Assembly (NCBI RefSeq): GCF_001640025.1
Contig: NC_031673.1
Location: 1,612,001 to 1,676,000, forward strand
DNA length: 64,000 bases
Reading direction: 5' to 3'
From: Sugiyamaella lignohabitans
Lineage: Eukaryota > Ascomycota > Dipodascomycetes > Dipodascales > Trichomonascaceae
The stretch's first letter is position 1; each line of letters begins with the position of its first letter. The notes beneath the pieces are model-generated. The model was given only the letters and a program-made list of their open reading frames with translations. It did no database searches and was not told the origin of the DNA. Below, in pieces: positions 23,397-63,978 of the stretch. Made by a program: the position numbers and the translations under genes.

Positions 23397-23449
23397 GCCT
23401 CCGGTGGCTGGGGCCCTGTCCCAGATCTTGTGGAGCTCGCTTTGCTAGC
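23397..23449 (+). repeat. GC double-hairpin element, decayed copy 1
   Basis: Head GCCTCCGGTGGCTGGGG is recognisable. The first stem is altered (GGGGCCCTGTCCC) and the tail reads GAGCTCGCTTTGCTAGC. It is the most diverged copy accepted into the family. Confidence 0.6.
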
Positions 23450-24347
23450 ACGTTGACTATGATAGAACATGGCTATTTGCTAACCGGAGTTCTGGCTCCG
23501 GCCCGTTGTTCTTCTGGTAGCTGAACCAGTTCGTACTTTAAAACAGTGATGAGAGGATGTAAAAGTCAAACTCGAGCTGCAGAGATAGAGGGTCTGCGAG
23601 CCCGGTATTGCCCCAGCATCCTCTAAGGAAAGATCTTATATTCCTTTGGACTTCTAGAGAAGATCGAGTTGTCCCTACTTTTAATATTGAATATCAGAAT
23701 GGCAGTAGTATTACATACAGTTACATGGATATGGTAGCAGCCGTCCAACCCACTTGAAAGCAGAGCAATTAGCCGTCGTGACTTAAAATAATATTTAGCT
23801 AAGCCCACAGAAAGATCTTCCTCAGGAGCTACATGACCAATTGTCCCTAAAGATATATTGAGGGAAGCGAGCTGTATTTATATTTCAGATTTGTGGTCTC
23901 TGCTAATCAGCGGCGGATAACAGCTGAGGTAGGTAATGCAACTCTGCTAGCAAAGGTCACTGAAGTGCAGGCTACAGATCGCCCATTGAAATTATATCAG
24001 GGGTAGCGAATATGCAGGGGTAGACGAGGAAGGGCCGATCAGTTGACCCGCACGGTACTGGGCTAAAAGTAATTGATTCAACGAGCAGATTACCTATCGT
24101 CCAGGATCTCTTTTTTTACTTGGCACGAAGTAGTAAGACAGGTCATTCTCAGGTTCTTTGGTGGTGAGCAATTGAATAAATTAGGTAGTGCAGCTCTGAT
24201 GTAGAAAAATAAGAGACGATGCAGATATCAATTGAACCGATTTCCAGCTGTCTAACATACCAAGTACGATGCTGACTAATCTTGAACAGAACACATCCCA
24301 GCCAAGGAGCCGAGTCAAGTGAGGAGCAATACCGGGACTCAGAAGCT

Positions 24348-24407
24348 CGACTCGAGCGTAGCGAGAGGAGCAACGGGGTCTGGGGCAAAGCCCCAGCCGC
24401 CGGAGGC
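24348..24407 (-). repeat. GC double-hairpin element, copy 2
   Basis: Complete copy on the minus strand with the CTCTCGC/GCTCGAG-type tail. The loop of the first stem is TTT in element orientation, instead of TCC, while the stem is intact. It ends 43 bp before the NRAMP stop codon, in its 3' region. Confidence 0.9.
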
Positions 24408-24450
24408 AGGTTGGTAAAAAGTGAAAATATTAATGCAATAGTACTTTTGT

Positions 24451-27400
24451 CTACATTTTAACGTCGGCGCCCAGCGCCATGGAGAGGATTAGGAAAGCAT
24501 TCAGCGAAGACACGAAGACGAAGATAAAGATGGCTATGCCGTTCGTGAGTTTGCTGTTGCTCATGTCAAGGTAAGCTACAGCAGGTGAGTTCGTGCCGAC
24601 AGTAGTTTCGTCAGTTTCAACTGCTGTATACCCGTCAGATCCAGAAGTGGTGACGGGGGTCCTGTCGGTGATGCGCACGCTCATGATCTTTTTGGATTGT
24701 GTGAAGTATAGCAATGGAGCTGATACAAATGGGAGTAGTAAACTGAGCACCACCTGACTGGCGTTGAGAACATCAGCCAGTCCTTTGCGTCCTACAAACA
24801 ATGCTACCAGCAGACATGGGGCTATAGCAATAGCACGTGTAATGAGTCGTCTAATCCACGGTTGGAATGACCAATGTAGGAATCCTTCTGAAACCATTTG
24901 TCCTGCCAGGGTACACACGATACCAGCCGACTGGCCAGAAAACAACAGAGCAAGAGCAAAGATAACTGCAGCAAAGTGACCGAGGTATTTCCAAAGCATG
25001 TCATAAATACTGAACAAATCGGCGTCCTCGGCTTCTGGCGAGTGGGCTAAAGTGGCTGCTGCCACGATAAGAATCGCACTGTTGACAAATATAGCGACAG
25101 TGAATAGCGACATGACGAGCTCTGCAATAGAGAAGTTCATGGCATATTTAATAGCATGAATACTGGGTCGGTACCGTGATGCCTCCCACGAGCTGTTGCT
25201 AGAATAGATCGATGCAGAAGAGGCGTGAAGAACTTCTTCAATCTCATCCTCAATGTCCTGGATAATGTTGGGTGTAGTGCCGCTCGAAGAGTCGTCAGAG
25301 AAGTAGCCATGCTTGGTATCGAACTCACGGAGTCTAGGTTGAACAAGTCCTGATCCGAGATATAAACTATGAGGCATAACAGTAGCTCCTAAAATACCAC
25401 ATGACATGTATAAACCATCAGATTCTACCAGCTCTGGAGATGGTAAAAATCCCTTTAGTACTGTACCAAGGCCAATAGGCCCGATGCTCATGAGTTCCAC
25501 TGCGAAACATAGCACCACTACAAATACTAGTACAGAAACCAGATATTCAAAGTAACGCACAAACTTGACAGGACCATTTGGTCGATATGCCATGAGTACT
25601 ATTAAAACGTCGAGAACCGTCAAAAGCACGCCTATCGCCAGAGGAATGTTAAATAAAATGTTCAGGGCAATGGCAGTACCTACTACTTCGGCCAAATCAG
25701 TGGCTATAATGGCGATTTCCGCCAAAATATAAATGGCTATACAGAGCCATCTGGGAAGGTGTTCTCGGCAATTTTGAGCCAAGTCGAGGCCCGTGACTGA
25801 TCCGAGCTTTACACAGAGGATTTGCAGAAACACAGCAAACACATTTGACAGTAGAATCACAAACAAATGCTTGTACTGATACATAGCACCCGCCGTCACA
25901 GCAGTCGAGTAATTACCTGGATCCAGGTATGCTACCGAGACCATAATGCCCGGACCAATGAATCGGGCATACTTGAACGCGACTTTACGCGAATGTGTAA
26001 TAATATAGTCGATTTTTTCTTTAAACGACATTGAACTGTTGAGAATAGATGACGAAGATGGAGAGTATGATCGTCCTGAACCGGTACTATTAGCTGTGCC
26101 ACTGCTGCCTCTTCTATCAATATTTGACTCGGCAGTGGTGCCAAGATCGGGTCCGCCTGGCATAGTTGTGTTTCTGTTGGGATCAGACAGACTCGGACCA
26201 CCAGGTGGATCGAGCTGTTCAGTAGTAGAAGTGCCGTATGAACTAATCGGAGCACTAGGTTTTAAATAGCTGTTTCTTCTTCTACTGGCAGGACTCGGAG
26301 TATCAGCAGATGTGGATGGTGTCATATCTGACGTGACTGTGTGAGTAGAATGCAAAGTTCGGGGTTTAGACCTTGAGCCAAACTGTGAGTTGAGGTTGGA
26401 TATGCTATTAGTGTCAACCTGTCCTTGCTCCCTCAGACGTCTAATATTATCAATCTGTTGGAGAAGTGGGATATTGGCAGAATACTGACTGGCTCTTGGA
26501 TCCAAATCAGTGCTATCAAAGTCGTCTTCGTCTTCGTCTATCGATTCGTTGCCGTACTCGCCGTCGTCCTGGCTCGTGTCAAAATCAAACGAATGACTAA
26601 ACTCTTCAGGAGGCTTGGTATTGAACCGAACTTTTTTAACAGCAACTGAGTTATTGTCCACTATGTTTTGCGGGGTGTTGGATAATGCAGACTGTAGTAA
26701 GCCCGAATCTGGACCCTTTGCCAGTACTAATCCCCTATTTAGTGAGAGATATTTAGGGTTAGGATCGTCGGGTGCGTCCGGGCGGTAATTAGCAGGGGGG
26801 TCGAGCGACGTGTACAGAATGGGAGCTGATTCTAGCAGACGTGATGATGAGGCGAGTGAGGCGGGTGAGGCGAGGGTTTCAGAGTCGTCTGATCCAGATC
26901 TAGGAGCAGCTGCGACAATTGCGGGGGTGACTAGACTCGAGTTAGGGGTTCCATGTACCGTAGTGGTTGGTTCTGTCGTGGCATTTCTAACGGCACCAGC
27001 AGAAGTCGTATATCGGACAGAGGAAACTGAACGAGAATCTGTTGGATACGACGAAGCAAATAATTTTGTAGTTGTAGATGACGTAGCATGATTTGATGTA
27101 AGTGGTGTAGTAGACCCACTAATAGAAGTTGTTGAATTAGCAGTAGAAGAATCAATAGAACTATTAATCGAATCTGTAGAACCGTTGATAGAATTCGTAG
27201 AACCAGCAATCGAAGCTGTAGTAGAGCCCTTAACAGAATGTGTCGAGGTCTTAGTAAGTGAAGTTGAAGGGGCAGTAGAAGAGCCAGTGGAAAAATCACC
27301 TGAAGAACCAGTGGAAGAACCACTAGAAATGGCAGCAGAAAGGGTAGTAGAAGTAGTAGTAGTATTGAGCGAATCGTTGACATCGCGTCGAGTCGCATCG

Positions 27401-28118: not shown

Positions 28119-28180
28119 GCCTCCGGCGGCTGGGGCTCCGCCCCAGACCCCGCTGCTCCTCTCGCTTCGCTCGAGTCGGG
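28119..28180 (+). repeat. GC double-hairpin element, copy 3
   Basis: Full consensus copy: head GCCTCCGGCGGC, stem CTGGGGC-TCC-GCCCCAG, tail CTCTCGCTTCGCTCGAGTCGGG split by no change. It lies in the promoter region of the NRAMP gene. Confidence 0.95.
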
Positions 28181-29065
28181 CCTCGGGCTCCCCTGGAAGC
28201 TTGACTTTTGGTCTCGAGCTGCCTGTTATGCGAATAAGATTACCTTGTGGTTATATTTATTCAAGACCAAACAATGGTATATATCTAGTGATATTCAGCC
28301 GATTTCTTGTTTGCCGGTGGAAGTCTGCTCCTGGTTTTCCTATTCTCCTCTTCCTCTCCAGTGGTAGATAGTAGGGTGACTGGTCTGTAATATTTTGAAA
28401 ATCTTCAGCTGAAATATGGACAGCCAAGAAACCCCAGGAGGAAAAATAAATAGAAATTTCAGTGGTAAATACTGTATGAATGTTTATTGTTTTAGGGTCG
28501 TCGGCTGTGTTCAATGTTTTTTTCAGATGACGCAGTATGCAACTTTAAATTGCGATCGACGACGGATAGTCCCTAAAACATGTGCAATAGAATCCGAGCT
28601 ATAGCCGGAGACAGTTGGTCAAGTGATCCAAAAAGAGGTGGAAATAGTAGTGAAAAATAGCACGGAGACGTGTGAGCCGTGTTATAGTCATTTGGTTCTA
28701 ATAAATAGCGGGTATTGGAGCAAAAAGAAGATGTAATAACGATAGCAGTCCGACGGTTGGAGCCTTCAACAGCCAAGAATGCAGACTTGAAGTGCTTCCT
28801 ATTTTCTTCTTCTCTTAAGTATTACGAGTCTTTTTATGATAACAATTTTTTCCAAACAGTTCATAGAGAGTCTTTTATAATATATAATTTTTTAGATTGA
28901 TTTTTTAATGGAGATAAGAGTATGAGAGGTTGTGAAAAAGTCTCAAAGAGCCTCAAGAGGGTCTCAGAGGCCTAAGAGAGCACAGTTCCTTCCTCTGAGG
29001 CAGAAAGGCCTGATCCACTTTTACCCACCAAATCCAACACCGACCCTCCTGTCAGACGGTCCTAG

Positions 29066-29119
29066 CAAACGAGCGAAGCGAGCTACGGGGTCTGGGGCAG
29101 AGCCCCAGCCGCCGGAGGC
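29066..29119 (-). repeat. GC double-hairpin element, copy 4
   Basis: Minus-strand copy with intact first stem, loop TCT in element orientation, and a variant tail AGCTCGCTTCGCTCG. It lies about 280 bp upstream of the NIP1 start. Confidence 0.9.
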
Positions 29120-32183: not shown

Positions 32184-32238
32184 GCCTCCGGCGGCTGAAG
32201 CTCCGCCCCAGACCCTGTAGCTCTCCTACTTCGCGGGA
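32184..32238 (+). repeat. GC double-hairpin element, copy 5
   Basis: Slightly decayed copy (stem CTGAAGC / GCCCCAG has lost pairs; tail CTCTCCTACTTCGCGGGA). It forms a convergent pair with the copy 23 bp to the right. Confidence 0.85.
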
Positions 32239-32261
32239 CGCTGTTGGGACTCTCGACTGAA

Positions 32262-32323
32262 CCGACTCGAGCGTAGCGAGAGGAGCAACCAGGGTCTGGG
32301 GCGGAGCCCCAGCCGCCGGAGGC
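32262..32323 (-). repeat. GC double-hairpin element, copy 6
   Basis: Minus-strand copy with intact first stem and CTCTCGC-type tail (loop middle base changed, GTA). It is 51 bp from the BLM10 stop codon. Confidence 0.93.
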
Positions 32324-35300: not shown

Positions 35301-38300
35301 CAGAAAACCATACTTTTGTAGCAAAGAGCAATGCTTTGAAAGATGCAATATCATTCTCTCTATTCTTGCTTAAGTAGGTATGTATTTCGTGCAAGAACTT
35401 TCCAAGGTCAAGTCGTAGTTCATGGATACGACGATATAAAGGATCATCAGCCTTGGTATGCTTATCAAAGAAATAGTTTACTGGATACTCACGGAACTTT
35501 TTGAGGTCCACAATTTCTCCCTCAAAATCAAGATCGTCATCCACTGCAATCAAATTGTTGTTCATTAGCTCATCTTCCTCGTCGAAGCTAGACGCATCAG
35601 AATCAGAATCCATTTCTTGTGAAACGCTTTCTTCATATTCAGAGTCGCCAACATTCTCATTCAATCCAGACTTTTCGCCATACTTTGGGTCAAAGAGCAA
35701 AGCAACACCTGAAGTGGCAGTACGAATATACGTAATGTTATTTGCTATCAGGTCAGATAATTCAGTTGGCGAATATTTCTTCTCTGCACCCTGCTGATTC
35801 ACCACAAGTTTAAGAGCATCTGTTGATACCTGACAATGCTTCGAATAGAGGTCAACCGCAAACTCAATCTCATTTCTCGACGGTACATGCCATTTCAATT
35901 TTAGATTTTTGGTATCCGCTTTAGCACCCCAATCTCCAAGACCCACCGGATCTCCTTCAGGAACCAAGCTGTAGTCGTTTGATGTCGTCGTAGTCAAAGT
36001 CATTAAAGTATGATGGATGGCATTGGAAACATGGAATACAATAGCTCCTTTGCAATGCTCACGCAGATACAAGGTCAGTTCCATGATCTGATCTTTAAAT
36101 ACAAACGCCTCAGCAAATGCATGTGCCAGCACCATATTCAGCGCTGACAGATACCAGATTAAAGCTCTATCACGAGGAAGAATCTCCGAGCCACTTCGAG
36201 TAGATCCAGCTCCGTTCTCTTCAATCTCCTCCTTGATCTTATAGTACAGCATATTGAACATTTTAGGAAATGCTACCTCTGGATTCACCTTGATTAAGCA
36301 ACCGCAAATATGCGCAACTGGGTCGGCAGCATGGTGAATCACATTATGCTCTACAAAGTCGACTACGTGATTGACAATCCGCTTGAACAGATTTGGAGAA
36401 ACTGCTCCTAATATAGCAGTAACTGCAGGTGGTAATGCATTGGACACCTGAGCCTCTGGTGAATCACGGGCCGCTTTAGCAGAACCTGATCCGGTCCCAG
36501 AATTATCTGGCAAGTTTTCTAGCATTGCAAAGATTCTATCGAATACCATGATTACAAACTCGTCAAAGGATGCAGTTGAAGATTTAAGCACTTGCGGAAT
36601 CATCTCTTCAGGTATTTCAGGTAGCTTACCATGTTCTTCCAGATAAGAGATTGATCCTGCGATAGTTTCCATGGCCAATCCAGATCCCATATTCTCGCTA
36701 ATATCGTAGAATGGCACGTTCAAAGCTACTGCCTGAATAAATGACAGCGAATGCAATGTCTTGGATAAATCATTAGCGTCTATGCCAGGGACAGCTAGAC
36801 CCAGCAGTGTTGTAATGTGTAAAGCATATTTTGGCACTTGGGAGATTTTTCTTGCCAATACGGTCAATGCCTTAAGCGAGGACATTGTTCGATGCGTCTC
36901 AACCAATCCTTGCAATGACGGATACACCTCACCGAGCAGTCTAGGGATAATCAAATCTGGAGATAGATATGCAAGACCCTGTAAAGCTTCTAATGAACTG
37001 GCTACAACAGTGGTACTCTTGGCATGGATTCCCAGAAATGTGGCATTTCTTAAAATCCTGACAAATCTGTCCTTGACTTTATCAGTCAAATGACGCTCGG
37101 CAGGAATCACTGACTCCTTGTAGGGGTTGCCTTCACAATCCACTGTGTCTGACGACTGCACATTCCATCTCAGTAAAAATATCTCTACCATGGCTGCAAT
37201 AGTCTGCATTATATTTCGCGTCCATGCTCCCTGGTTAGATGGGTGCACAAACGTCTCTACCGCGTGCATCAAACTTTCCAACTTATCTAAAATACCGTCT
37301 GGCTCTAAACCACTTTCTGCCGATAGCGAATATACGATGAGATTCGCAATTGGCCTCGCGCATCTGTTCTTTTTGTCTCTATCGGATTTAACGCTTACAG
37401 TCTCATTTGACTGAACGTACGGCGAGCCAACATACGATACCGGTACTTCAAGCATGCGCAAAATAGCGCTAAACACAATCGACAGCTGTTCAGGGGTCAA
37501 AATTCCGTACTTATCAAAACTGACTAATTTCGACGATATCGAGTCTGAAACCAACGTCGCCACTAAATCCAGAGACTGGAAATCATACAAAGATGATCTT
37601 GGCAGCAGTGACCACATATGGAATATCGCTGGTAGCATGTATTTCGGCATGATCTCTAACTCATCTCCCTCTGCTGGCACAGCAGGCGTAAGCAGAATCA
37701 GCAAACTCATAACATTGTGGGATACACTTGCCTTCGAAACGGCATACTTCTTTTGTTAGTTCTTGGTCCGCAATGCCTCCGGCGGCTGGGGCTCCGCCCC
37801 AGACCCCCCTGCTCCTCTCGCTTCGCTCGAGTCGGGCGTGGGGAGGGGAGAGATTTGAAGAGCAGCCAAAATCATTCTGACATGGCAAACTTACGTGTGG
37901 CAGGATCTCCTCCAGAATTTGTAATGTTAGCTCGGGCTTGATCAAGTGACGAGCCACCTGGGCCAGCCTGGATAATGCAGAAAATGACTTGGAAATGCTG
38001 CCTTCATAACTCGACTGCTGTGGAAATGCCAATTTCCTCATCACCACCACAAGCGTACGCCAATCCAGATCTAGATCCTGTGGCTTAACTGTATCTTGAA
38101 ATAGATCATCTTTACATAGTAAGCAAAACATGTTGATGAACTTCTCCATTGCTGCTCCATCTGTTCCTGCTAGAGCGAGCGAGTAATACAGTTTGATGAG
38201 CTTGATTCGCGTTTCCAGTGGCATGTCAAACTTAAGACTAATCCAAGATCTGAGTTCTTTAGTCCAATGATACACAGCTGGCCCAGTACTATTTCCAATT

Positions 38301-45732: not shown

Positions 45733-45789
45733 GCCTCCGGCGGCTGGGCTCCGCCCAGACTGGTGGTGCTCGCTTCGCGAGCGACTGGG
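45733..45789 (+). repeat. GC double-hairpin element, copy 8 (compensated variant)
   Basis: Stem 1 is CTGGGC-TCC-GCCCAG, shorter by one G:C pair on both sides. The second hairpin is a perfect GCTCGC-TTC-GCGAGC. Both changes keep pairing. Confidence 0.93.
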
Positions 45790-45800
45790 ACCGTCGACGC

Positions 45801-45861
45801 TCGACTCGAGCGCAGCGAGAGGAGCAGCGGGGTCTGGGGCGGAGCCCCAGCCGCCGGAGGC
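45801..45861 (-). repeat. GC double-hairpin element, copy 9
   Basis: Full minus-strand copy that forms a convergent pair with the copy 11 bp to its left. The pair lies about 200 bp past the HMG gene stop. It is the one copy whose head is followed by T rather than A. Confidence 0.95.
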
Positions 45862-49094: not shown

Positions 49095-49155
49095 CCGACT
49101 CGAGCGCAGCGAGAGGAGCCACGGGGTCTGGGGCAGAGCCCCAGCCGCCGGAGGC
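49095..49155 (-). repeat. GC double-hairpin element, copy 10
   Basis: Full minus-strand copy, CTCTCGC-type tail, loop TCT in the first stem. It is bordered on the left by a C-rich tract. Confidence 0.95.
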
Positions 49156-49547: not shown

Positions 49548-49609
49548 GCCTCCGGCGGCTGGGGCTCCGCCCCAGACCCCGCTGCTCCTCTCGCTTCGCT
49601 CGAGTCGGG
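49548..49609 (+). repeat. GC double-hairpin element, copy 11
   Basis: Full consensus copy followed by GGCGTGGGGGTCCCCC, a G-rich tail common after this tail type. Confidence 0.95.
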
Positions 49610-50069
49610 GCGTGGGGGTCCCCCGCTGGGGGGTGCCAGGGGAGGGTTGGGAGGGGACTGGGTTGGTGGTGGTGGTGGTTCTTCTAGCGGTGAGGAGGGG
49701 CCGGGGGAAGCAGCAGATGCAGCAGGAACCACGTTTATTGCCTTATCGTGCACCTCGGGCCTGTGGCCGGAGGCACTTCTGGCCGCAGTGTCTGGCAGGG
49801 CAGAGCCACAACGGACTGAACTGGCCATCGATAGCAGCGTGCGAACTAGCCTCGTCCGCACAGGCGTGTCTCTGGCACCACCTCCGCCATCTCAGGCGGA
49901 GCTGCCGTGACCCGTAGATTGGGACATCGTCCTGCTCCCCTCGTCCGTCCTATGCCCTGGCGCCATGCCCGTTTTCGGCATGTGCTCCCCTCCAAACCCA
50001 CACCGCCGGGTCGTCCCCTCCTCCTCGCTACCAAACGAGGGGCACTACCACCCCTCCCCCGCGCCCTCC

Positions 50070-50125
50070 TGTCGCTTTGCTCGAGGAGCCACGGGGTCTG
50101 GGGCAGAGCCCCAGCAGCCGGAGGC
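50070..50125 (-). repeat. GC double-hairpin element, copy 12
   Basis: Minus-strand copy with changed tail (TCGCTTTGCTCGAG region) and one change in the head (CAGCCGGAGGC). First stem intact. Confidence 0.88.
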
Positions 50126-50194: not shown

Positions 50195-50256
50195 GCCTCC
50201 GGCGGCTGGGGCTCTGCCCCAGACCCCGTTGCTCCTCTCGCTGCGCTCGAGTCGGG
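50195..50256 (+). repeat. GC double-hairpin element, copy 13
   Basis: Full copy with loop TCT and tail loop TGC. It is preceded by GGGGGTGGGGTGCT, the same flank as copy 16. Confidence 0.95.
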
Positions 50257-50275
50257 CGAGGGGGAGGGGTGCCGT

Positions 50276-50330
50276 CTCCTGCGAAGCAGGAGCAACCAGG
50301 GTCTGGGGCGGAGCCCCAGCCGCCGGAGGC
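50276..50330 (-). repeat. GC double-hairpin element, copy 14
   Basis: Minus-strand copy with the perfect CTCCTGC-TTC-GCAGGAG tail hairpin. It forms a convergent pair with the copy 19 bp to the left, although the tails differ. Confidence 0.95.
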
Positions 50331-50843: not shown

Positions 50844-50906
50844 CCCGACTCGAGCGAAGCGAGAGGAGCCACCAGGGTCTGGGGCGGAGCCCCAGCCGCC
50901 GGAGGC
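50844..50906 (-). repeat. GC double-hairpin element, copy 15
   Basis: Full minus-strand copy with CTCTCGC-type tail and CCCTGGTGG linker. Confidence 0.95.
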
Positions 50907-51237: not shown

Positions 51238-51300
51238 GCCTCCGGCGGCTGGGGCTCCGCCCCAGACCCTGGTGGCTCCTCTCGCTTCGCTCGAGTCGGG
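51238..51300 (+). repeat. GC double-hairpin element, copy 16
   Basis: Full copy, linker CCCTGGTGG, CTCTCGC-type tail. Its left flank (GGGGGTGGGGTGCT) is identical to that of copy 13. Confidence 0.95.
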
Positions 51301-51493
51301 CTGGGGGGTCCCCAGCGGCAGGTGGAGGGGCGGGCGGGGTGTGGACGGAGAGGGGGCATGGGCATGAGTGGGTTTATTATTCGAGCTGCTTGCGGTGCTG
51401 GTGGTGGTGGGAAGGGATCGGTGCGGGGAGCGTCTCATGTCACGACCAGCCGGTCCTGCCGCCGTCCCCAGCCTGCCCACCACCTCCACGCGA

Positions 51494-51554
51494 CGACTCG
51501 AGCGCAGCGAGAGGAGCCACCAGGGTCTGGGGCGGAGCCCCAGCCGCCGGAGGC
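51494..51554 (-). repeat. GC double-hairpin element, copy 17
   Basis: Full minus-strand copy facing copy 16 across about 190 bp, with the same linker type. Confidence 0.95.
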
Positions 51555-52264: not shown

Positions 52265-53408
52265 CATGCGACAGGCTAGACAAAACCCAATCGACACGAA
52301 GATATCCGAGAAAGAACCGAGGAAAGAGATAACAGGACAGCAGAGCAGGGAATCTACGGAGTCGCGGACGAGATCCAGGAATATCAGGCCAGGCCCGGAG
52401 ATCATCAACAGATGACTGAGCCGGACGTGGTGGGCCAGACCAGTGCAGTCGTCAGTTTTAAACTTTATTCAGGCACAATTAACGGTCGACCCTGGCAAAT
52501 GTTTCAGCTGTAAGGGGGATTTCTTTTTCTCAGAGATGGTATGGCCTCTTTGCTCCCTCGTTACAGTTCCCCAGTTGGGCATCAGCCCTCGTTTTCCCCC
52601 GCATACCAGGCCAAAACTTATTATTAGCTTAAACTCTATATTCTGCATACAAGCGGGCGAAATAATATCGACTGTTTCCTACTTTAGCAATTGGAGATAA
52701 TCAAACTTTATACTAATATAACTGAATAATTTACACGGGTTCTAGTTAATTTGTTTTTGTTGATGTTATATGGTGTAAGTAACGTTCACATGCCAGTTGC
52801 AATTGGTTATTTTGACTCCTCTTTTTCTGATCAGCGTTTGGATTAGTTCTGTCTTAGCTGTTGTTGTTTCTTTGCCAGGAATGGAAATACCAGACGGCGA
52901 GAAGTAGAGTTTTGAGTGGAAACAGTGGAGAGCGTGGTTGTGGCAGCATGTGTGGTGGTGGCAGGATGTAATGGGATATGATATAGCAGAGTAGAGTATT
53001 TAGAATTAGACCTAGCAGTAGTGGTAGCAGTGGTGGTGATAGAGGGTGGGATATCTCAATCTGGAATGTAGTTAGAAAGAGGGAGGTGTAACGGGCACTC
53101 AAAGTGGACCGCGCAATTCGGATTTCGGGAGAGGAGCCCTGGAGATAGCGGAATTAGCAGGCCGTAGGTTGGAGCGAGTGACGTTATAGCTTCGCAAGAG
53201 CAGTAGCAAGAGCAGTAGCAAGGGCAGAAGCAGAAGGAGATTGCAAAAGCAAGAAACTGGCAGTAGCGAGGTCGAAGCGAGGAACACGACAGGAGCGGCA
53301 GAACAGGACCCAGCGAGTTCGTCACACCTCCAACGAAACCATACAAATGACCTCAACGACAGAACTTCAACGTTGACCACCCCCCTAGCACTGGCAGCAC
53401 CCCGGGCA

Positions 53409-53464
53409 ACTCCTGCGAAGCAGGAGCAACCAGGGTCTGGGGCGGAGCCCCAGCCGCCGGAGGC
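53409..53464 (-). repeat. GC double-hairpin element, copy 18
   Basis: Minus-strand copy with perfect CTCCTGC/GCAGGAG tail hairpin. It stands alone, without a close partner. Confidence 0.95.
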
Positions 53465-53915: not shown

Positions 53916-53954
53916 CGTTCGTTACTTTTGGCCACTGCAAAAACTCTAAATAGC

Positions 53955-54167: not shown

Positions 54168-54222
54168 GCCTCCGGCGGCCGGGCTCCGCCCGGACCCGTG
54201 GCAACTCCGCGAAGCGGAGTTG
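54168..54222 (+). repeat. GC double-hairpin element, copy 19 (compensated variant)
   Basis: First stem CCGGGC-TCC-GCCCGG and second hairpin AACTCCGC-GAA-GCGGAGTT. Both stems differ from consensus on both sides and stay paired. Confidence 0.93.
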
Positions 54223-54419
54223 GGTCGTGGGGGGAGACGGGTTGTTTTGGTGGTCCCTGGCGTTCGCCAGCTGTCAAATGGGTTGACACCTGGAATTGTT
54301 TTTGGGTGGTTTCGTCTCCGACATGTAACGGTCCCACCTGATTAGGGACATCAGACATGCGGATCTGCTCATGCTCGTTCATGCCCGATCTCGAGATCAT
54401 GCTCTGGCAGCGGCCCTGT

Positions 54420-54474
54420 GCCTCCGGCGGCTGGGGCTCCGCCCCAGACCCTGGTTGCTCCTGCTTCGCAGGAG
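54420..54474 (+). repeat. GC double-hairpin element, copy 20
   Basis: Full copy with CTCCTGC/GCAGGAG tail. It faces copy 21 across about 270 bp. Confidence 0.95.
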
Positions 54475-54742
54475 TTGGCTGGGGCGGTCTGTCGAATGGG
54501 CGACGGGGATGGGTGCGTGAGTCTGAGACTGACGCGGTTCGCAGCTGAAACTCCGCTGCTGGCGATTCTGCCGAGTTCCGAGGCTCGCGAACTGAGACTC
54601 AGTCTGTCAATTAACTCAGACTCGGACTTTGTAAACTCTGACTGTGATTCTGAGACCCTGAGTCTGAAATAAAATCCAACATAAGCTCCCCTGACCCCTC
54701 CCCTGACCCCTCGTCCCCCCACCACCCCACCGGCCCCTCCCC

Positions 54743-54797
54743 CTCCTGCGAAGCAGGAGCAACCAGGGTCTGGGGCGGAGCCCCAGCCGCCGGAGGC
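54743..54797 (-). repeat. GC double-hairpin element, copy 21
   Basis: Full minus-strand copy with CTCCTGC/GCAGGAG tail, bordered on the left by C-rich tracts. Confidence 0.95.
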
Positions 54798-55004: not shown

Positions 55005-55059
55005 GCCTCCGGCGGCTGGGGCTCCGCCCCAGACCCTGGTTGCTCCTGCTTCGCAGGAG
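55005..55059 (+). repeat. GC double-hairpin element, copy 22
   Basis: Full copy with CTCCTGC/GCAGGAG tail, followed by a T run and a run of 20 C before its convergent partner. Confidence 0.95.
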
Positions 55060-55079
55060 TTTTTTTTTCCCCGGCCCAA

Positions 55080-55099
55080 CCCCCCCCCCCCCCCCCCCC
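55080..55099. repeat. homopolymer run of 20 C
   Basis: Uninterrupted C20 in the 51-bp gap between two convergent GC elements. Its exact length is hard to sequence, so it is also a likely assembly weak spot. Confidence 0.85.
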
Positions 55100-55110
55100 T
55101 CCCCGTAAAC

Positions 55111-55169
55111 GACTCGAGCGGAGCGAGAGGAGCCGTGGGGTCTGGGGCGCAGCCCCAGCCGCCGGAGGC
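55111..55169 (-). repeat. GC double-hairpin element, copy 23
   Basis: Full minus-strand copy, loop TGC in the first stem, tail loop middle base changed (GGA). Confidence 0.95.
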
Positions 55170-55347: not shown

Positions 55348-55401
55348 GCCTCCGGCGGCTGGGGCTCCGCCCCAGACCCCGTGGCTCCTGCTTCGCAGGA
55401 G
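55348..55401 (+). repeat. GC double-hairpin element, copy 24
   Basis: Full copy with CTCCTGC/GCAGGAG tail, followed by TTGGCCGGGACCCTGGGG, a tail also seen in part after copies 20 and 36. Confidence 0.95.
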
Positions 55402-55798
55402 TTGGCCGGGACCCTGGGGTGGGGTGCTGAGGGGGGGGAGTACGGGAGAGGGGTGATGCTGGGTCGACTAGTCCTGTTTGGGAGGAGGAGAAGGGATCTA
55501 CTCATTGTCGGAGCTATACGAGATTCACATTGAGCGACAGGGGATGAGGAGCCCGGAGGGGCATAGTCGAGACCGTCTGCTGCTGCTGCTGCTGTTGCTT
55601 GGCTGGCTGCCTGGCTGCCTTCCCGATGCCTCGATCTTAGCACGCTAAGGGCTGCTGATCCTGTGCCTTTAGTTGTTTTTTTTTATCTCCCCTCCTTCCT
55701 GTACGGTGTTTACGCTGTGGTTGGTACATCAACCACGCTAACGCCAATATTGCTTGCTGCTTCTACCGACCTGACGCTACTGACGCTCCAGACGCTGA

Positions 55799-56087: not shown

Positions 56088-56141
56088 GCCTCCGGCGGCT
56101 GGGGCTCTGCCCCAGACCCCGTTGCTCCTGCTTCGCAGGAG
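56088..56141 (+). repeat. GC double-hairpin element, copy 25 (left half of duplicated pair)
   Basis: CTCCTGC/GCAGGAG tail, loop TCT. With copy 26 it forms a 137-bp unit that recurs at 57298-57435 with the same spacer. Confidence 0.95.
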
Positions 56142-56164
56142 TTTCACCGGGCACCCCTCGCAAC

Positions 56165-56224
56165 GACTCGAGCGCAGCGAGAGGAGCAACCAGGGTCTGG
56201 GGCGGAGCCCCAGCCGCCGGAGGC
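56165..56224 (-). repeat. GC double-hairpin element, copy 26 (right half of duplicated pair)
   Basis: CTCTCGC-type tail with GCA tail loop. The 23-bp spacer to copy 25 reads TTTCACCGGGCACCCCTCGC plus three bases, near-identical to the spacer of copies 30/31. Confidence 0.95.
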
Positions 56225-56543: not shown

Positions 56544-56605
56544 GCCTCCGGCGGCTGGGGCTCCGCCCCAGACCCCGCTGCTCCTCTCGCTTCGCTCGAG
56601 TCGGG
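56544..56605 (+). repeat. GC double-hairpin element, copy 27
   Basis: Full consensus copy that pairs with the variant copy 28 across 40 bp. Confidence 0.95.
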
Positions 56606-56645
56606 CGTACACGTCCCAGCTGGCGGGGGGAGGGACCCCACACGC

Positions 56646-56699
56646 TTGCTCGCGAAGCGAGCAACAACGGGTCCGGGCAGAGCCCGGCCGCCGGAGGCA
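56646..56699 (-). repeat. GC double-hairpin element, copy 28 (compensated variant)
   Basis: First stem CCGGGC-AGA-GCCCGG and second hairpin TTGCTCGC-GAA-GCGAGCAA as read on the plus strand. Both differ from consensus on both arms with pairing kept. Confidence 0.93.
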
Positions 56700-56970: not shown

Positions 56971-57030
56971 GACTCGAGCGCAGCGAGAGGAGCAACCAGG
57001 GTCTGGGACGGAACCCCAGCCGCTGGAGGC
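56971..57030 (-). repeat. GC double-hairpin element, copy 29
   Basis: Slightly decayed minus-strand copy (CTGGGACGGAACCCCAG, CGCTGGAGGC). Confidence 0.9.
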
Positions 57031-57297: not shown

Positions 57298-57352
57298 GCC
57301 TCCGGCGGCTGGGGCTCCGCCCCAGACCCTGGTTGCTCCTGCTTCGCAGGAG
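57298..57352 (+). repeat. GC double-hairpin element, copy 30 (left half of duplicated pair)
   Basis: CTCCTGC/GCAGGAG tail. Together with copy 31 it repeats the unit at 56088-56224. Confidence 0.95.
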
Positions 57353-57375
57353 TTTAACCGGGCACCCCCCGCAAC

Positions 57376-57435
57376 GACTCGAGCGCAGCGAGAGGAGCAA
57401 CCAGGGTCTGGGGCGGAGCCCCAGCCGCCGGAGGC
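57376..57435 (-). repeat. GC double-hairpin element, copy 31 (right half of duplicated pair)
   Basis: CTCTCGC-type tail with GCA tail loop. The spacer to copy 30 reads TTTAACCGGGCACCCCCCGC plus three bases. It lies about 175 bp past the PHD gene stop. Confidence 0.95.
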
Positions 57436-57609
57436 AGTCCGCCCTCCCCGTGAGGGGTGGTGGTGGGGGAAATTAGTTTGTTGATTTTCAGTTACTTTGC
57501 ATGGGTCCAGAGCAGGGTCCAGAGCAGATTTTGGTGATGGTGCAGGCCGATCGGGGCAAAGTGTGGGGTAAGTGAGGAGGTCGGCGGTCAGTGAAAGTGA
57601 ACACATGTC

Positions 57610-58981: not shown

Positions 58982-59012
<31 letters not shown>

Positions 59013-60825
59013 CAGCTTCAGCTTTCCGCTGCTTGTTCTCTTCCTGCTCTTCTTTCTCAGAAATAGATTTCAATACACTTTCTCGTTCTTCTTGTGGTAA
59101 ACATGCTACGTGCATCCACGTATTGCACCTCTCACAAGCAACACTGAGAGTGCCGTCATCATAGTTCTCTCCGTATACTCCACAAGTACAGTCAAACACC
59201 CACGAATCTTCCGACTCCATTTGTGACAGTTCTTGTTGTGCTTTTTGTTGTTGTAATTCTTGTCTTCTACTGCTCTTACGCAAACTACCTTCGTCACTAG
59301 TGCCATTTTCAGAAGCAGGAGTCATAGAACGAAGTCGTTCTATCTGGCTATGACGGTCGAGTTTACGACGTTCCCTTTCCATAAACCGCTGTTCTCGAAG
59401 TTCTTCTTTCATGAGTCGTTCATTTTCTAATCGTTCTTCTTCCTCTTGTACTCTACGTTGTCTGTCTTGCTCTTCACGAATCGCCTGCTCCTCCAGCTCT
59501 CGTTGATGCTTCTCTTCTAATCTTGACGACCGTTTTCTATTAGCCACTAACAACGCTGTAGTTCGTACTTTGACTCTAGCAAGTGCTGTCTTGACTCGGG
59601 TTTCTTCGTGTGCTTCAATCACCGGCATCACATGCTTCACAAGATAATTATGAAGTTGCTTCTCTCCAGCCTGTTTCGACTTTTTCAGCTGGTCCACAAA
59701 TGCCTTCCACGACTCCAAATGCCAACATACACACTCGAATTCCGGTTCATACTCTCTAGCTAGTGCCTCGCCCATTGTAGGAACAGGCTCGGGTACTGAG
59801 TCTTCTGCTTCAGCTTCTCCGTCTTCCTGTTTCATATCCACATCTTCATTACCATTAGTTTGGTGGTTAACACTATCGTCACCACCGTTTCCCTCATCAC
59901 CTTCACCTCCCTCTTCTACATCCTCATTATCCTCATTGTCTTCATCATCTTCACTCTTTGACCGATACTTGTTACTGGTCGACCTCTTGCGCCTCTTATA
60001 AGAAGATCCAAAAGGCCGATTCGACCTCCGTCGTTTTTTCTTTCTAGCAGCTTCTGCTGCTGCGGCAGCAGCTGCTTCGGCCTCTGCTTCAGCAGCCAAT
60101 CTAGCTTCTTCTTCCTCCTTTTCACGAGCCTCCAAAACATCGTCAATATATGGCTCGAAGTCCGTCTTCAAATACAGTCTGTTATCGTCAAATAAATAAT
60201 AACTGCCGAAATCTCCCTTCCAGCCAATAGGAGCAATACGAAACTCTTCGACAGGAACGTCCATGGCCTCGATTTTCGTTCGAAACCGGTCATCTATCGA
60301 TACCCATCTGACGACATGGGCAATTGCCTTTACTTTCGACTCGGCATCCAGTTCAGTGAACTTTCTCTCAAAACTGTCTGTTTCCTCATTATATTTCCCA
60401 AAAATCTTTGTTCCCGTGGTCTCGCCATCGTCAAAAATATATCCTTTTCGTACAAACAGTTTCCATAACCGTTCATTTGTATCCTCATAGTCGTTATAAG
60501 CAGATACTTTAACACCGACTGTCAAAGCAGCAATCAGAGCTCGAACCAATTGAGGAAGTAGAGCTCCGACCGGGCCATTAAGACCAATGAGATCTTCTTC
60601 AAGAACGTCACGAGCCGAATCGGTTTCTGGAGACGCAGGAATGCCGAGAATGGGTCTAAAAAACGACAGAAACTGCGTTATTGAGCACAATTCCCACGAA
60701 TCTCGCAGCTTTTTAAGCACCTCCTGATACTGGTCGTCGTCTAACGGGATCACCGGCGGTCCAGCCAGAGCCTGGATCCTCTTAATCCCGTACGAGCCTT
60801 TAGGTCGTCCCATTGGTAACTCCAA
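57610..60825 (-). CDS. DDT-like/PHD-finger chromatin protein (Ioc2-like)
   Basis: 1071 residues (a start at codon 5, MGRPKGSYG, is also possible). Order: an AT-hook-like GRPKGS; an N-terminal DDT-like helical segment (about 30-110, ELCSITQFLSFFRPILGI...LLPQLVRALIAALTVG); a WHIM-like part (VRWVSIDDRFRTKIEAMDVPVEEFRIAPIGWKGDFGSYYLFDDNRLYL); basic and acidic linkers; coiled coil (about 420-500); a PHD finger (CTCGVYGENYDDGTLSVACERCNTWMHVACL...FICDRC); then Gln/Ala and Thr/Ser/Pro-rich sequence to the end. Such proteins are ISWI-type remodeller partners or related chromatin readers in fungi. Oddity: roughly 90-95 residues, including poly-Ala, separate the sixth ligand Cys from the last Cys pair of the PHD finger. 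S. cerevisiae Ioc2 is the nearest idea, but I cannot verify it. Confidence 0.8.
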
Positions 60826-61344: not shown

Positions 61345-61406
61345 GCCTCCGGCGGCTGGGGCTCCGCCCCAGACCCCGCTGCTCCTCTCGCTTCGCTCGA
61401 GTCGGG
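61345..61406 (+). repeat. GC double-hairpin element, copy 32
   Basis: Full consensus copy in direct tandem with copy 33 (18 bp apart). Confidence 0.95.
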
Positions 61407-61424: not shown

Positions 61425-61486
61425 GCCTCCGGCGGCTGGGGCTGCGCCCCAGACCCCACGGCTCCTCTCGCTTCGCTCGAGTCGGG
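61425..61486 (+). repeat. GC double-hairpin element, copy 33
   Basis: Full copy, loop TGC, linker CCCCACGG. It forms a convergent pair with copy 34, which shares loop and linker. Confidence 0.95.
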
Positions 61487-61529
61487 CGTCGGCGACCCCC
61501 TGAGTTGGATTTCACGTCAACCCCCGAAC

Positions 61530-61591
61530 CCCGACTCGAGCGAAGCGAGAGGAGCCGTGGGGTCTGGGGCGCAGCCCCAGCCGCCGGAGGC
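61530..61591 (-). repeat. GC double-hairpin element, copy 34
   Basis: Full minus-strand copy with loop TGC and CCCCACGG linker, the near-exact reverse of copy 33. Confidence 0.95.
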
Positions 61592-61655
61592 AGACCCTCA
61601 GGAGTATGAGCAAAGATTACAATTACTTTTAGGCCCGGGAGGGGGCCGGGAGGAA

Positions 61656-63978
61656 TTACACAGCGGATCTGGAGCCGCGGGTGGAGGAGGAGGAGCCTCC
61701 GCGACTGGGCCGGCCGCCACGGCCTCGCGAGAAGAAGTGACCGCCGCCGCGGCGGGGGTAGGAGTTAGAGCGGTCGCCGATGAGCGAGACTCGGCCGGCT
61801 TTGGTTTTGTCCATTTTTTCCATGGCCGACTTGGCGAGGTCGGCAGTGGGGAAGTGCACGAGGGCGAATTTTTTGTCGGGGTGACCGAAGGATTCTTTGA
61901 TTTCGATGTTGGTGACGAGGGATTTGTCGTCGTCGGTGAAGAATGCTTTGATCTCGTCTTCGGTGGCATGGCCGTTAGAGATCCAGATTCCTGGTTGTTG
62001 TGGCTCTTCTGGTACAGGTGTCGAGGATGTTGCTGGTTTTTCAGTAGCAGCAGCTGTTGATGTCGCTGTTCCATTGGTGGTGGAGGAGGTGGAAGTGGAT
62101 TCGGTTGCTACAGGAGTACCACCATTGGTTGCTGTTGTTGCTGTTGTGGAAGTACCATCTGGAGTACTGGCTCCGGGTGCTGAGGGGCTGGCAGATGCTG
62201 CTGCTGGTGAGTTACGAGCACCGGTGTTGTTGCTGGTGTTGTTGCTGCTGGTACTGTTGCTGGGGGTGGTAGCACCAGTGGCTGTCGAGTCTGTATTAGC
62301 ATGTTTGCCGGTTTTAGCAGATGACGTATCGAGACCCTGCTTGGTTTTCTGATTTCCTGTCGTGGCAGTAGTCGTTGATGCTGCTGCAGTTGATTTTGCT
62401 GAGGTCTGGCCTGCTTTGGAGGTGGCAGCAGGACCAGAGGGAGTTCCTCCTGGAGCACCAGAACCGGTTCTAGAATCTGTTCTGTCAGTTCTGTCAGTTC
62501 TGGCAGCTCCAGTACCAGTAGTGGCAGAAACTGTACCAGTAGTATTAGCACTAGAAACAGCAGTATTAGAACCAGTACTAGCAGAAGTAGCAGTGGCACC
62601 GGCAGAACCTCGAGATCCACGACTGTTGTTCTTTCTGTACTTGAAATCAAATCCCTGTGATTTGGCCTCTACACTGACTCTGCCATCAACCACGTTCAAA
62701 ACAAGCGATCCGTACTCGGCATCGCACAGATTGAAGTTCCACATATTCCTATAGGCTGCTAACAGATAATCGGTTCGAGCAGGAGTTTCGCCAGTATTGA
62801 CTTCAGTAGGCATTCGTTCAAACACTTCAAGAGCAGATTGCAGTAAAAGCCGTTGTTTGGTGTCTTTTTCCAGCAAACTGAGCACCTGGACCTTGACATT
62901 TTCCCAGATATCCATAAACTGAGCACGAGCAGCCACTAATTTAGCTTTAAAGCTCTCAAAAGTGGGTTCGGCTGTGAATGCATTAAAACTGGATCCGTAG
63001 ATAAAATGAAGGCCCGAACTAACAGTAAAATCGGCTCGCAGTGCAATAGCTAGTGCCAATAACAGCCCTTCTCGTGAAGGACAAGGATGGGATATAAATA
63101 TCCGGATTTCACTAGCATCAAACGATTTTCGAACTGTTTGGATCAACTGGCCGATTTGTAAAGCCGTGGTCCACATCAACCCATGAGTTCCTGCAATAGT
63201 ACTAGTACCATCTCCATTATCAAAGAATCGATGAAGAACAAGACTACCACCCAGACCCATTAAACGAATGACATGGCCACTAGCAGTTTCAATGGCATGA
63301 GTCTTAGTCTCGTCAACAAGAAACAAATTAGGTACTGAATAAGTGCCATTATTGAACTTTTCAATGACTGTGAGGTCTTCAGATGCTCCATAAATACAGT
63401 ATACAGGCACATTGAGTTTGAATTTGCCGGAAATGAAATCGGGCAGTTCTGACAATGCGTTCTTAGCCAGTTTACTCTTAAGCTCCTGGCTATCCTGAGG
63501 CAATTTCGATGCATCCAGCAACGGCGAAAACATGGAAATATGCTTCAAAGTCTTGGGAACAATGCGATCTATACTGTGGCTGTCGAAAAACCCGAAATTG
63601 CCACTATGAATAATAATCGACGCCCGATGCTCCTTCGCCAGCTCGTTCAAATGACTAAGCCGGCCCCGGATCTCGGCCACCGCCAGAATCCTCAATCCCT
63701 GTACACTATGTACAACAGCCTACACATCGTTAGCAACACATTCTACACACCCCCACCACCACGGTCCAAGCCCCTCGAGCGAAGCTCGAGCAACGGGGTC
63801 TGGGGCGGAGCCCCAGCCGCCGGAGGCATAGGGGGCCACCGGGGAATTGCCTCCGGCGGCTGGGGCTCCGCCCCAGACCCCGTGGCTCCTGCTTCGCAGG
63901 AGATTGCTGGGACCGTGGGGTGTGGGGAGACGGTGTTGGGGGGAGGGGAGAGGGGGTACTTACGCCATTGGATACCAT
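61656..63978 (-). CDS. DUF2433 protein with C-terminal RRM-like and RGG region (2 exons)
   Basis: The main exon has no ATG at its start. The best model joins exon 63964-63978 (ATGGTATCCAATGGC, MVSNG) to 61656-63719, giving 692 residues. The 244-bp intron has donor GTAAGT, branch TGCTAAC and acceptor GTGTAG; an alternative acceptor GTACAG lies 21 bp further and is also in frame. The N-terminal ~340 residues match the fungal DUF2433 family, related to metallophosphoesterases: LRILAVAEIRGRLSHLNELA, IIHSGNFGFFDSHSI, VPVYCIYGASEDLTVIEKF, LGGSLVLHRFFDNGDGTSTIAG, RIFISHPCPSREG. A Thr/Ala/Ser-rich linker follows (about 365-565), then an RRM-like segment (IWISNGHATEDEIKAFF...FALVHFP) and an Arg/Gly-rich tail. 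RNA binding is inferred; the biochemical role is unknown. Two GC double-hairpin elements lie in the intron. Confidence 0.82.
63774..63827 (-). repeat. GC double-hairpin element, copy 35 (compensated tail)
   Basis: Second hairpin is a perfect CTCGAGC-GAA-GCTCGAG, the fully paired version of the common mismatched tail. It lies in the DUF2433 intron. Confidence 0.95.
63849..63902 (+). repeat. GC double-hairpin element, copy 36
   Basis: Full copy with CTCCTGC/GCAGGAG tail. It lies head to head with copy 35 (21 bp apart) inside the DUF2433 intron, the only tight divergent pair in the window. Confidence 0.95.

What the first reader, a model, noticed from the sequence alone, without database searches (positions are those of the whole stretch)
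23397..63902. A family of about 36 nuclear GC-rich double-hairpin elements
Thirty-six copies (18 per orientation) of a 54-63 bp element share a head GCCTCCGGCGGC, a first hairpin CTGGGGC-nnn-GCCCCAG, a short linker ACCCC/T..GGCT and a second hairpin with a TTC/GAA-type loop. None encodes a protein. This resembles the mobile double-hairpin or GC-cluster elements described from some fungal mitochondrial genomes, but here the copies sit among ordinary nuclear genes. Sequence, copy number and structure are seen directly. Mobility is inference, and I cannot say from memory whether this family has been described in this lineage.
Basis: partly seen in the sequence, partly recalled or inferred. Interest (0 to 1): 0.9.

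Follow-up and report, generated by a model that had tools for sequence, protein, structure and literature searches.

The report
Fold-back repeats at yeast gene ends
This yeast nuclear genome carries thousands of short GC-rich repeats, many of them halves of a mirror-image unit that tends to sit about 50 bases after the ends of genes, and the synonymous bases of neighbouring genes are shifted towards C or G in a gradient centred on the units, which suggests that they are long-lived sites of DNA processing.

Summary
The 36 copies are real (chance 0.14) and belong to a genome-wide family: 6,554 matches in 15.93 Mb, none for the reversed pattern. The "double hairpin" is only an arm. Arms pair tail to tail into fold-back units, typically ~137 bp: 1,044 exact-head convergent pairs against 14 divergent; 31 of 42 short units join a type A with a type B arm. 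No target-site duplication was found. Arms sit ~50 nt after stop codons: 37 of 62 ORFs ≥300 aa have a sense arm within 150 nt; relocations average 5.5, maximum 16. Unexpectedly, a strand-polar substitution gradient surrounds units: fourfold sites in the last 150 bp before a unit have C 0.58 against 0.22 in arm-free genes; 34 of 35 genes exceed their own interior. Genes starting beside a unit show the mirror effect (G). It fades within ~1 kb. Isolated single arms show little flank skew, though three ORFs ending at unpaired arms are raised too. Best reading: a non-autonomous, REP-dimer-like eukaryotic fold-back repeat marking sites of recurrent DNA breakage and resynthesis. Mobility and mechanism are inferred; empty sites were not testable.

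The parts
23397..24407 (.). two convergent arms (diverged + arm at 23397, type A - arm ending 24407) 1,011 bp apart; heads 39 and 44 nt after the stop codons of the ORFs 21472-23358 (+) and 24451-27666 (-, NRAMP)
28119..29119 (.). two convergent arms about 1 kb apart between divergent ORFs (NRAMP / eIF3c)
32184..32323 (.). fold-back unit between the convergent eIF3c (stop 32050) and BLM10 (stop 32374) ORFs
37775..37832 (+). single type A arm inside a presumed intron of the BLM10-like gene (GTAAGT...ACTAAC...AG on the - strand)
   Evidence: intron read by eye
45733..45861 (.). fold-back unit, arms type C and type A
49098..49155 (-). type A arm
49548..49605 (+). type A arm
50068..50125 (-). arm with rearranged second hairpin (GAGCAAAGCGA)
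50195..50330 (.). fold-back unit A/B, 136 bp
50849..50906 (-). type A arm; together with flank an inverted duplicate of the 51238 arm (122 nt, 94%)
51238..51554 (.). convergent pair of type A arms, 317 bp
53407..53464 (-). type B arm
54168..54225 (+). arm with CCGGGC/GCCCGG first stem and GAA-loop second hairpin
54420..54797 (.). convergent pair of type B arms, 378 bp
55005..55169 (.). fold-back unit B/A, 165 bp
55348..55405 (+). type B arm
56088..56224 (.). fold-back unit B/A, 137 bp
56544..56698 (.). fold-back unit A/C, 155 bp
56973..57030 (-). type A arm with changed bases in head and first stem
57298..57435 (.). fold-back unit B/A, 138 bp; single strand folds at -77.3 kcal/mol, z -14.9; 175 nt past the stop of ORF 57610-60813 (-)
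61345..61402 (+). type A arm, tandem neighbour of 61425
61425..61591 (.). fold-back unit A/A, 167 bp; 65 nt past the stop of ORF 61656-63533 (-), whose last 300 bp have fourfold-site C of 0.71-0.75
63770..63827 (-). arm with perfect CTCGAGC-TTC-GCTCGAG second hairpin
63849..63902 (+). type B arm

Best explanation
What it is: a non-autonomous, non-coding fold-back repeat family of a yeast nuclear genome. The arm is TGCCTCCGGCGGC, hairpin 1, a short linker, and a second part of one of several types. The usual unit is two arms facing tail to tail, typically one of type A and one of type B, around a short centre: about 137 bp in all, more when the centre is longer. How it works, with steps marked. 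(1) Shown by prediction: one strand of a unit folds into one long hairpin (three units). (2) Shown: arms are strongly enriched about 50 nt after stop codons, head towards the gene. (3) Shown: DNA on both sides of a pair carries a strand-polar, GC-raising composition gradient, with C on the strand that reads towards the unit and G on the other, fading over about 1 kb and sitting at synonymous sites. (4) Suggested: flank skew is much weaker at isolated single arms, so two arms may have to act together; the few ORFs beside unpaired arms do not bear this out. (5) Inferred: the arms form a structure (cruciform, or two ends joined by a protein) that is repeatedly nicked or broken; end processing and resynthesis leave the gradient. 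(6) Inferred: repair that copies from other units keeps arms alike at old sites and seeds new ones, so the family spreads by break repair rather than by a classical cut-and-paste transposase. Position at 3' ends follows from targeting or tolerance there; a side role as a two-way transcription roadblock is possible but untested.
For: Copy number 6,554 (3,251 + / 3,303 -) with 0 in the reversed control. Orientation of neighbours: +- 81, -+ 73, ++ 27, -- 25 of 206; spacing of +- pairs peaks at 136-139 bp. Genome-wide exact heads: 1,044 convergent against 14 divergent at the same gap, plus 239 convergent at the next gap class. A/B heterodimers in 31 of 42 units of 110-150 bp, no A/A or B/B among them. 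Fold -70 to -77 kcal/mol, z -12 to -15, for three units. 3' ends: 37 of 62 ORFs >=300 aa with a sense arm within 150 nt against mean 5.5, maximum 16 of 500 relocations; 5' ends 10 against 7.2. Gradient: fourfold C 0.577 against 0.221 in the last 150 bp (35 and 24 ORFs); gene means 0.564 against 0.224, 0 of 20,000 permutations as large, 34 of 35 genes above their own 600-1200 bp interior (arm-free genes: 16 of 24, mean difference 0.035); GC3 0.725 against 0.422 with GC at positions 1-2 nearly unchanged (35 and 26 ORFs). Mirror at gene starts: G 0.356 against 0.155 (17 and 40 ORFs; 0 of 20,000 permutations). Side-specific: 12 ORFs with a unit only at the 3' side have first-150-bp G 0.165; 5 with a unit only at the 5' side have last-150-bp C 0.237. 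Decay: skew about -0.25 at 16-200 bp to about 0 by 1.1-1.5 kb for 68 unit arms with free flank. Pairing: flank skew -0.210+-0.015 in units (152 arms) against 0.005+-0.035 at 30 isolated single arms of similar intactness (26.54 and 26.07 of 28 matches). Seen in each part of the sample: C1, C2/C3, C4, window.
Against: No empty site, strain or sister genome was seen, so movement is not shown. No transposase link: Y1_Tnp and MULE profiles find nothing in the genome; Helitron could not be tested because its control was silent. No target-site duplication in 62 units. The substitution spectrum does not match a known break signature: in human meiotic hotspots the forward strand in the flanks shows C>N and A>N changes (PMC7615360 passages), whereas here the strand reading towards the unit gains C. 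Pairing is not a clean requirement: pairs 260-600 and 600-1100 bp apart show the skew too (-0.206+-0.031 and -0.157+-0.029, 15 and 12 arms), and the three ORFs that end at an arm without a partner within 1.1 kb all have raised last-150-bp C (0.67, 0.38, 0.40; two lie near the edge of the stretch read). In the window one of two ORFs at a 1-kb pair shows no gradient (0.21 against 0.20 inside), the other a weak one (0.35 against 0.19). Single genes are noisy. Hairpin 1 shows no compensatory change: of 15 changed cells among 1,330, 13 break a pair and none change both sides. That arms are alike (26.5 of 28) is partly built in, since copies were found by likeness.
Confidence: 0.45

Rival explanations
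1. The units are initiation sites of DNA synthesis (replication origins or priming sites). The G-rich strand reading away from the unit has the sign of leading-strand skew (recalled).
For: The skew changes sign at units in the direction expected for an origin: reading towards the unit C>G on both sides.
Against: The gradient ends within about 1-1.5 kb even where no other arm lies within 2.5 kb on that side (24 arms), whereas fork-direction skew should run on; GC also rises near units; density is about one arm per 1.7 kb in 18 stretches of C1 (105 arms in 180 kb), far denser than known origins (recalled).
Confidence: 0.15
2. The units are two-way promoters of antisense transcripts; R-loops downstream of those starts leave G-rich non-template strands, as at CpG-island promoters (recalled).
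For: Sign, length (about 0.5-1 kb) and GC rise of the gradient would fit.
Against: No RNA data were available and no promoter feature was tested; the weakness of flank skew at isolated single arms is not expected if one arm can be a promoter.
Confidence: 0.15
3. The arms are 3'-UTR or terminator elements kept by selection (sense hairpins about 50 nt after the stop), and spread is secondary.
For: 37 of 62 ORFs >=300 aa have a sense arm within 150 nt; bacterial REPs lie next to the 3' ends of ORFs too (PMC3733652 passages).
Against: 26 of 75 ORFs >=200 aa have no arm within 300 nt and mostly AT-rich 3' ends by eye; no head within 1 mismatch lies in the first 23 kb of the window; arms also lie between divergent ORFs (12 of 18 such intervals) and in gene-poor blocks; no compensatory changes in hairpin 1; the gradient on both sides is not explained.
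Confidence: 0.1
4. An ordinary MITE family moved in trans by a DDE transposase; the gradient reflects a preference for landing in GC-rich, skewed spots.
For: Terminal inverted repeats TGCCTCCGG...CCGGAGGCA, high copy number, subfamilies.
Against: No target duplication in 62 units; MULE profile absent (other DDE families not searched); a preference would have to reach 300-500 bp into synonymous sites with opposite strands on the two sides, while the interior of the same genes is normal.
Confidence: 0.13

Closest known systems
REP sequences and their dimers (BIMEs) of bacteria
   Same: Small palindromic repeats in many copies, often head-head or tail-tail dimers, homo- or heterodimers with different stems, placed close to the 3' ends of ORFs (PMC3733652 passages; BIME details otherwise recalled).
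   Different: Eukaryotic nucleus; longer arms (about 58 nt) with a 12-nt head; no GTAG tag (5 of 246 arms have it within 12 nt before the head) and no Y1 transposase profile match; strand-polar gradient in flanking genes.
Double-hairpin elements and GC clusters of fungal mitochondria
   Same: GC-rich, hairpins, non-coding, mostly intergenic, thought mobile (PMC10085805 and PMC4478555 passages).
   Different: Nuclear; paired into inverted units; no AG/ACT duplications; thousands of copies, against 5-25 identical copies of the commonest GC clusters in one yeast mitochondrial genome and 1-14 double-hairpin elements in fission yeasts.
MITEs / fold-back DNA elements
   Same: Non-coding, terminal inverted repeats, high copy number (general features recalled).
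   Different: No target-site duplication found; interiors of longer pairs have no relatives in the sample; no transposase identified.

Membership tests
Bacterial REP/BIME | GTAG or CGTC tag at one end | tested here: not met
   GTAG within 12 nt 5' of the head in 5 of 246 arms; last base before the head is T in 94% of 204 arms; CGTC not counted
Bacterial REP/BIME | associated IS200/IS605-type tyrosine transposase (RAYT) | tested here: not met
   PF01797: 0 matches in the genome, control rang in 5 of 14 genomes
Bacterial REP/BIME | inverted dimers next to gene 3' ends | tested here: met
Mitochondrial DHE / GC cluster | located in mitochondrial DNA | tested here: not met
   contigs with nuclear genes; the four contig lengths sum to the whole genome held, so no mitochondrial contig was there to search
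Mitochondrial DHE / GC cluster | two hairpins | tested here: inconclusive
   hairpin 1 perfect in 197 of 206 exact-head arms; second perfect hairpin missing in 77 of 206
Mitochondrial DHE / GC cluster | short direct target duplication | tested here: not met
   62 units, best z 2.4 among 512 settings of length (3-10) and offset; duplications of 1-2 bases were not tested
MITE (class II) | terminal inverted repeats | tested here: met
   1,044 exact-head convergent pairs
MITE (class II) | target-site duplication | tested here: not met
   a 2-base duplication such as TA was not tested as such
MITE (class II) | autonomous partner with the same ends | tested here: inconclusive
   MULE absent; other DDE families not searched
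Mobile element in general | presence/absence at orthologous sites | not testable with these tools
   no strain or sister genome held; paralogue attempts uninformative
Structured RNA element | compensatory base changes | tested here: not met
   hairpin 1 of 190 standard-length arms: 0 of 15 changed cells both-sided; rare stem types CTGGGC (6) and CCGGGC (6 of 206) exist; no Rfam hit in the window

The most novel reading that the evidence does not exclude
A network of several thousand fold-back units serves as built-in nicking, breaking or synthesis-start sites at the ends of a large share of the genes of a yeast. They are maintained at fixed old sites by copying from one another, and steadily rewrite the synonymous bases of neighbouring genes in a strand-dependent way: a site-specific, genome-wide source of biased evolution in a eukaryotic nucleus.
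Probability: 0.3. Interest if true: 0.93.

Novelty: new variant of a known kind. Interest (0 to 1): 0.8.

Why it matters
If right, one small repeat has shaped the base composition of the ends of perhaps half the genes of a yeast (37 of 62 sampled ORFs >=300 aa have an arm there). The gradient, with mirror images on the two sides and arm-free gene ends as controls inside the same genome, gives a direct way to study how DNA processing at inverted repeats biases substitutions. It also shows a REP-like lifestyle in a eukaryotic nucleus; the listings of ten full-text searches showed no description of it. Practical point: codon-usage and GC3 studies of this yeast need to allow for it.

Tried and rejected
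Empty sites inside the genome: a 2.3-kb dispersed repeat with inverted ends (L019:3696-6034) was searched genome-wide because gaps in some copies had about the size of a unit; the three stretches read hold an AT-rich minisatellite and no exact head. Two paralogue pairs whose gene ends differ in an arm (L023, L036) are too diverged in their 3' flanks to align. Shared interiors: apart from arm sequence, short local duplicates and simple runs, the cores of +- pairs have no relatives elsewhere in the sample (listing cut at about 120 rows), so the two 1-kb pairs in the window are not evident copies of one larger element. Covariation as support for function: not found. Neighbour patterns with a 2-mismatch head were discarded: the head is nearly its own reverse complement and gave false pairs; one search repeats it properly. 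A folding scan of gene ends with shuffles timed out and was replaced by a plain one without shuffles. The codon-scored gene set was too strict (41 genes) and was replaced by ORF length cut-offs; ORFs overlapping arms were dropped (4 at >=300 aa, 8 at >=200 aa). L001-L008, L033-L034 and L037-L039 were left out of the counts. Within-unit likeness of arms is only suggestive (loop identical in 0.44 of 18 pairs against 0.26 random). A mitochondrial origin could not be tested: no mitochondrial contig is held. Exact head-plus-hairpin-1 sequence in viral contigs: none.
Full report
SETTING. The window is C4:1612001-1676000 of a genome of 15,932,016 bases in four contigs (lengths 5,930,846, 4,950,000, 2,773,601 and 2,277,569, which sum to the whole). 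It holds ordinary yeast genes (NRAMP, eIF3c, BLM10, Ssl1 and a class I tRNA synthetase among them: Pfam hits for 7 of 8 and 6 of 7 ORFs). The eIF3c protein is closest, among hits with a named organism, to Blastobotrys adeninivorans (60%; unnamed metagenome proteins reach 69%). Size and four chromosomes fit Sugiyamaella lignohabitans CBS10342 (16.0 Mb, 4 chromosomes, 6,820 genes: PMC5499181 passages), but the name is my inference and was not confirmed.

THE OBSERVATION. The 36 heads are there, 18 per strand, against 0.14 expected. Genome-wide the first 28 bases occur 6,554 times with up to 3 mismatches, and not once when the pattern is read backwards. Eighteen stretches of 10 kb on the first 3.4 Mb of C1, mostly at 200-kb steps, hold 105 arms by a slightly wider definition, between 0 and 12 per stretch. 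Arms with an exact head and an exact type A or type B second part number 1,345 and 1,497.

THE REAL UNIT. Many arms are not single. Among 206 neighbouring pairs in 304 kb the order +- occurs 81 times and -+ 73 times, ++ 27 and -- 25. The +- spacings pile up at 130-200 bp with a peak at 136-139, while -+ spacings are broad. Genome-wide, exact heads 98-128 bp apart are convergent in 1,044 places and divergent in 14; 239 more convergent pairs are 129-159 bp apart. Of 42 units of 110-150 bp, 31 join a type A and a type B arm and none joins A with A or B with B. One strand of such a unit is predicted to fold into a single long hairpin (-70 to -77 kcal/mol, z -12 to -15, three units) while a lone arm folds weakly (-14.3, z -1.7, one arm). 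Longer pairs have interiors without relatives in the sample, apart from arms and short local duplicates. Of 246 arms by the wider definition, 153 are in pairs of 110-260 bp, 55 in pairs up to 1.1 kb, 30 are isolated and 8 are other. Arms are also copied locally in tandem together with part of the centre (examples). Direct duplications of 3-10 bases next to units were not found: the best of 512 combinations of length and offset has z 2.4 (62 units). Bases -14 to -4 before the head are G-rich and the last base is T in 94% of 204 arms.

PLACE IN THE GENOME. Of 62 ORFs of at least 300 aa (4 that overlap arms were dropped), 37 have an arm in sense orientation within 150 nt after the stop codon; 500 random relocations of the arm blocks within non-ORF sequence give 5.5 on average and 16 at most. 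32 of the 37 lie in blocks of two or more arms. Arms near 5' ends are not clearly enriched (10 ORFs against 7.2) and none within 150 nt is in sense there. Distances from stop to sense arm centre on about 50 nt. The orientation is what the symmetry of the unit predicts: the near arm usually turns its head to the gene. 26 of 75 ORFs of at least 200 aa have no arm within 300 nt and mostly end in AT-rich sequence, judged by eye, so the unit is not needed for gene ends. Intervals between ORFs hold an arm in 15 of 18 convergent, 18 of 24 tandem and 12 of 18 divergent cases. Two further contigs look alike (ORFs of L035 on C2 and L036 on C3).

THE GRADIENT. While testing flank composition I found that the strand reading towards a unit is rich in C over G on both sides, in coding and non-coding DNA alike. 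In 35 ORFs that end within 150 bp of a unit, fourfold-degenerate sites of the last 150 bp have C 0.577, G 0.170, T 0.153, A 0.100; in 24 ORFs without any arm within 600 bp they have C 0.221, G 0.112, T 0.399, A 0.268. Values return to the background between 300 and 1200 bp. Third positions carry the rise in GC (GC3 0.725 against 0.422); GC at first and second positions hardly moves. Gene by gene the means are 0.564 and 0.224, with 0 of 20,000 permutations as large, and 34 of 35 genes exceed their own interior, against 16 of 24 arm-free genes with a mean difference of only 0.035. Genes that start beside a unit show the mirror image: G 0.356 against 0.155 in the first 150 bp (17 and 40 ORFs; 0 of 20,000 permutations). 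The effect is confined to the side that has the unit (12 and 5 ORFs). By a nearest-arm rule it is seen on C1 (22 ORFs, 0.554), C4 beyond the window (6, 0.626), C2/C3 (3, 0.501) and in the window (3, 0.558). With free flanks the skew falls from -0.25 to about zero by 1.1 to 1.5 kb (68 and 24 arms).

DOES PAIRING MATTER? Flanks of paired arms have skew -0.210+-0.015 and of 30 isolated single arms 0.005+-0.035, although both are similarly intact. The contrast holds in three contexts, with few unpaired cases (near 3' ends -0.240 against -0.014, 44 and 5 arms; near 5' ends -0.207 against -0.098, 19 and 6; away from ORFs -0.143 against -0.050, 90 and 27). Arms whose partner lies 260-1100 bp away still show it. 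Against a strict need for a partner, all three ORFs that end at an arm without a partner within 1.1 kb have raised C (0.67, 0.38, 0.40), two of them near the edge of the stretch read. Of the two window ORFs at the 23.4-24.4 kb pair, one has no gradient and one a weak one. The role of pairing is therefore suggestive, not settled.

INTERPRETATION. A bias that changes synonymous sites this far needs, I infer, long residence at one site, yet the recognised arms in units are much alike across the genome (26.5 of 28 bases; partly because they were found by likeness). Either the arms are renewed by copying from other arms, or they are strongly selected; the lack of compensatory changes in hairpin 1 (0 of 15 changed cells) speaks against selection for the stem as such. 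I therefore favour recurrent breakage or nicking at units, with resynthesis of the flanks and copying between units. Strand-polar mutation around breaks is known in human meiotic hotspots, but there the forward strand shows C>N and A>N changes (PMC7615360 passages), so the spectrum differs and the biochemical step is open. [quoted passage not shown] Origins and outward transcription are rivals with the right sign; the short reach speaks against origins.

COMPARISON. The closest relatives in behaviour are bacterial REP dimers, which also sit close to the 3' ends of ORFs, as homo- or heterodimers (PMC3733652 passages), but the GTAG tag and the transposase of REPs were not found here. Yeast mitochondrial GC clusters have AG or ACT duplications (PMC4478555 passages) that were not found here; double-hairpin elements are described from mitochondria (PMC10085805 passages). 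The listings of ten full-text searches showed no description of this family, and passages of two papers on related yeasts gave none (PMC13130702, PMC12232646). Subscription papers are mostly not in that library; the genome paper of the likely species was not held under the DOI I recalled.

LIMITS. ORFs are open reading frames from ATG, not annotated genes. About 0.32 Mb of 15.9 Mb was read for the counts, chosen by position, with one 30-kb block on C1 taken because it is dense in arms. No RNA, break or population data were available. Standard errors are bootstraps over arms and ignore that neighbouring arms share flanks.

Noticed in passing
L019:3696-6034 (C1:1603696-1606034); also L020 and C4:1690095-1690815: A dispersed 2-2.3 kb repeat with 172-bp inverted ends (77% alike) and a 281-aa ORF without Pfam match; 37 matching pieces listed genome-wide (a lower bound), the long ones mostly on C1 1.6-3.8 Mb, with a variable AT-rich minisatellite.
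   Followed up: partly
L033 and L034 (both ends of C4): The contig ends are inverted copies of each other (90% over 0.6 kb) and carry AT-rich hairpins with GCTTCGC tips, like the tip of the second hairpin here, but no arm and, by eye, no telomere repeat.
   Followed up: no
window 37601-38500: The BLM10-like gene is split over two frames by what looks like an intron that contains a single arm.
   Followed up: partly
window 47751-57609: A GC-rich block (up to 64% GC) without a confident long gene, holding most of the window's arms and CAG/CTG-type runs; a similar dense block lies at C1:200001-230000.
   Followed up: no
L027 (C1:3200001-3206000): About 6 kb of long tandem repeats with units of several hundred bases, about 85-94% alike, without arms.
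   Followed up: no
window 18985-19195: Between two convergent genes lies what may be a decayed unit (GGGGCAGGGCCCC with a TTCGC-like part), in a region without recognised arms; judged by eye.
   Followed up: no
G000 contig C2: The contig length is exactly 4,950,000, which may mean that the held sequence is cut.
   Followed up: no
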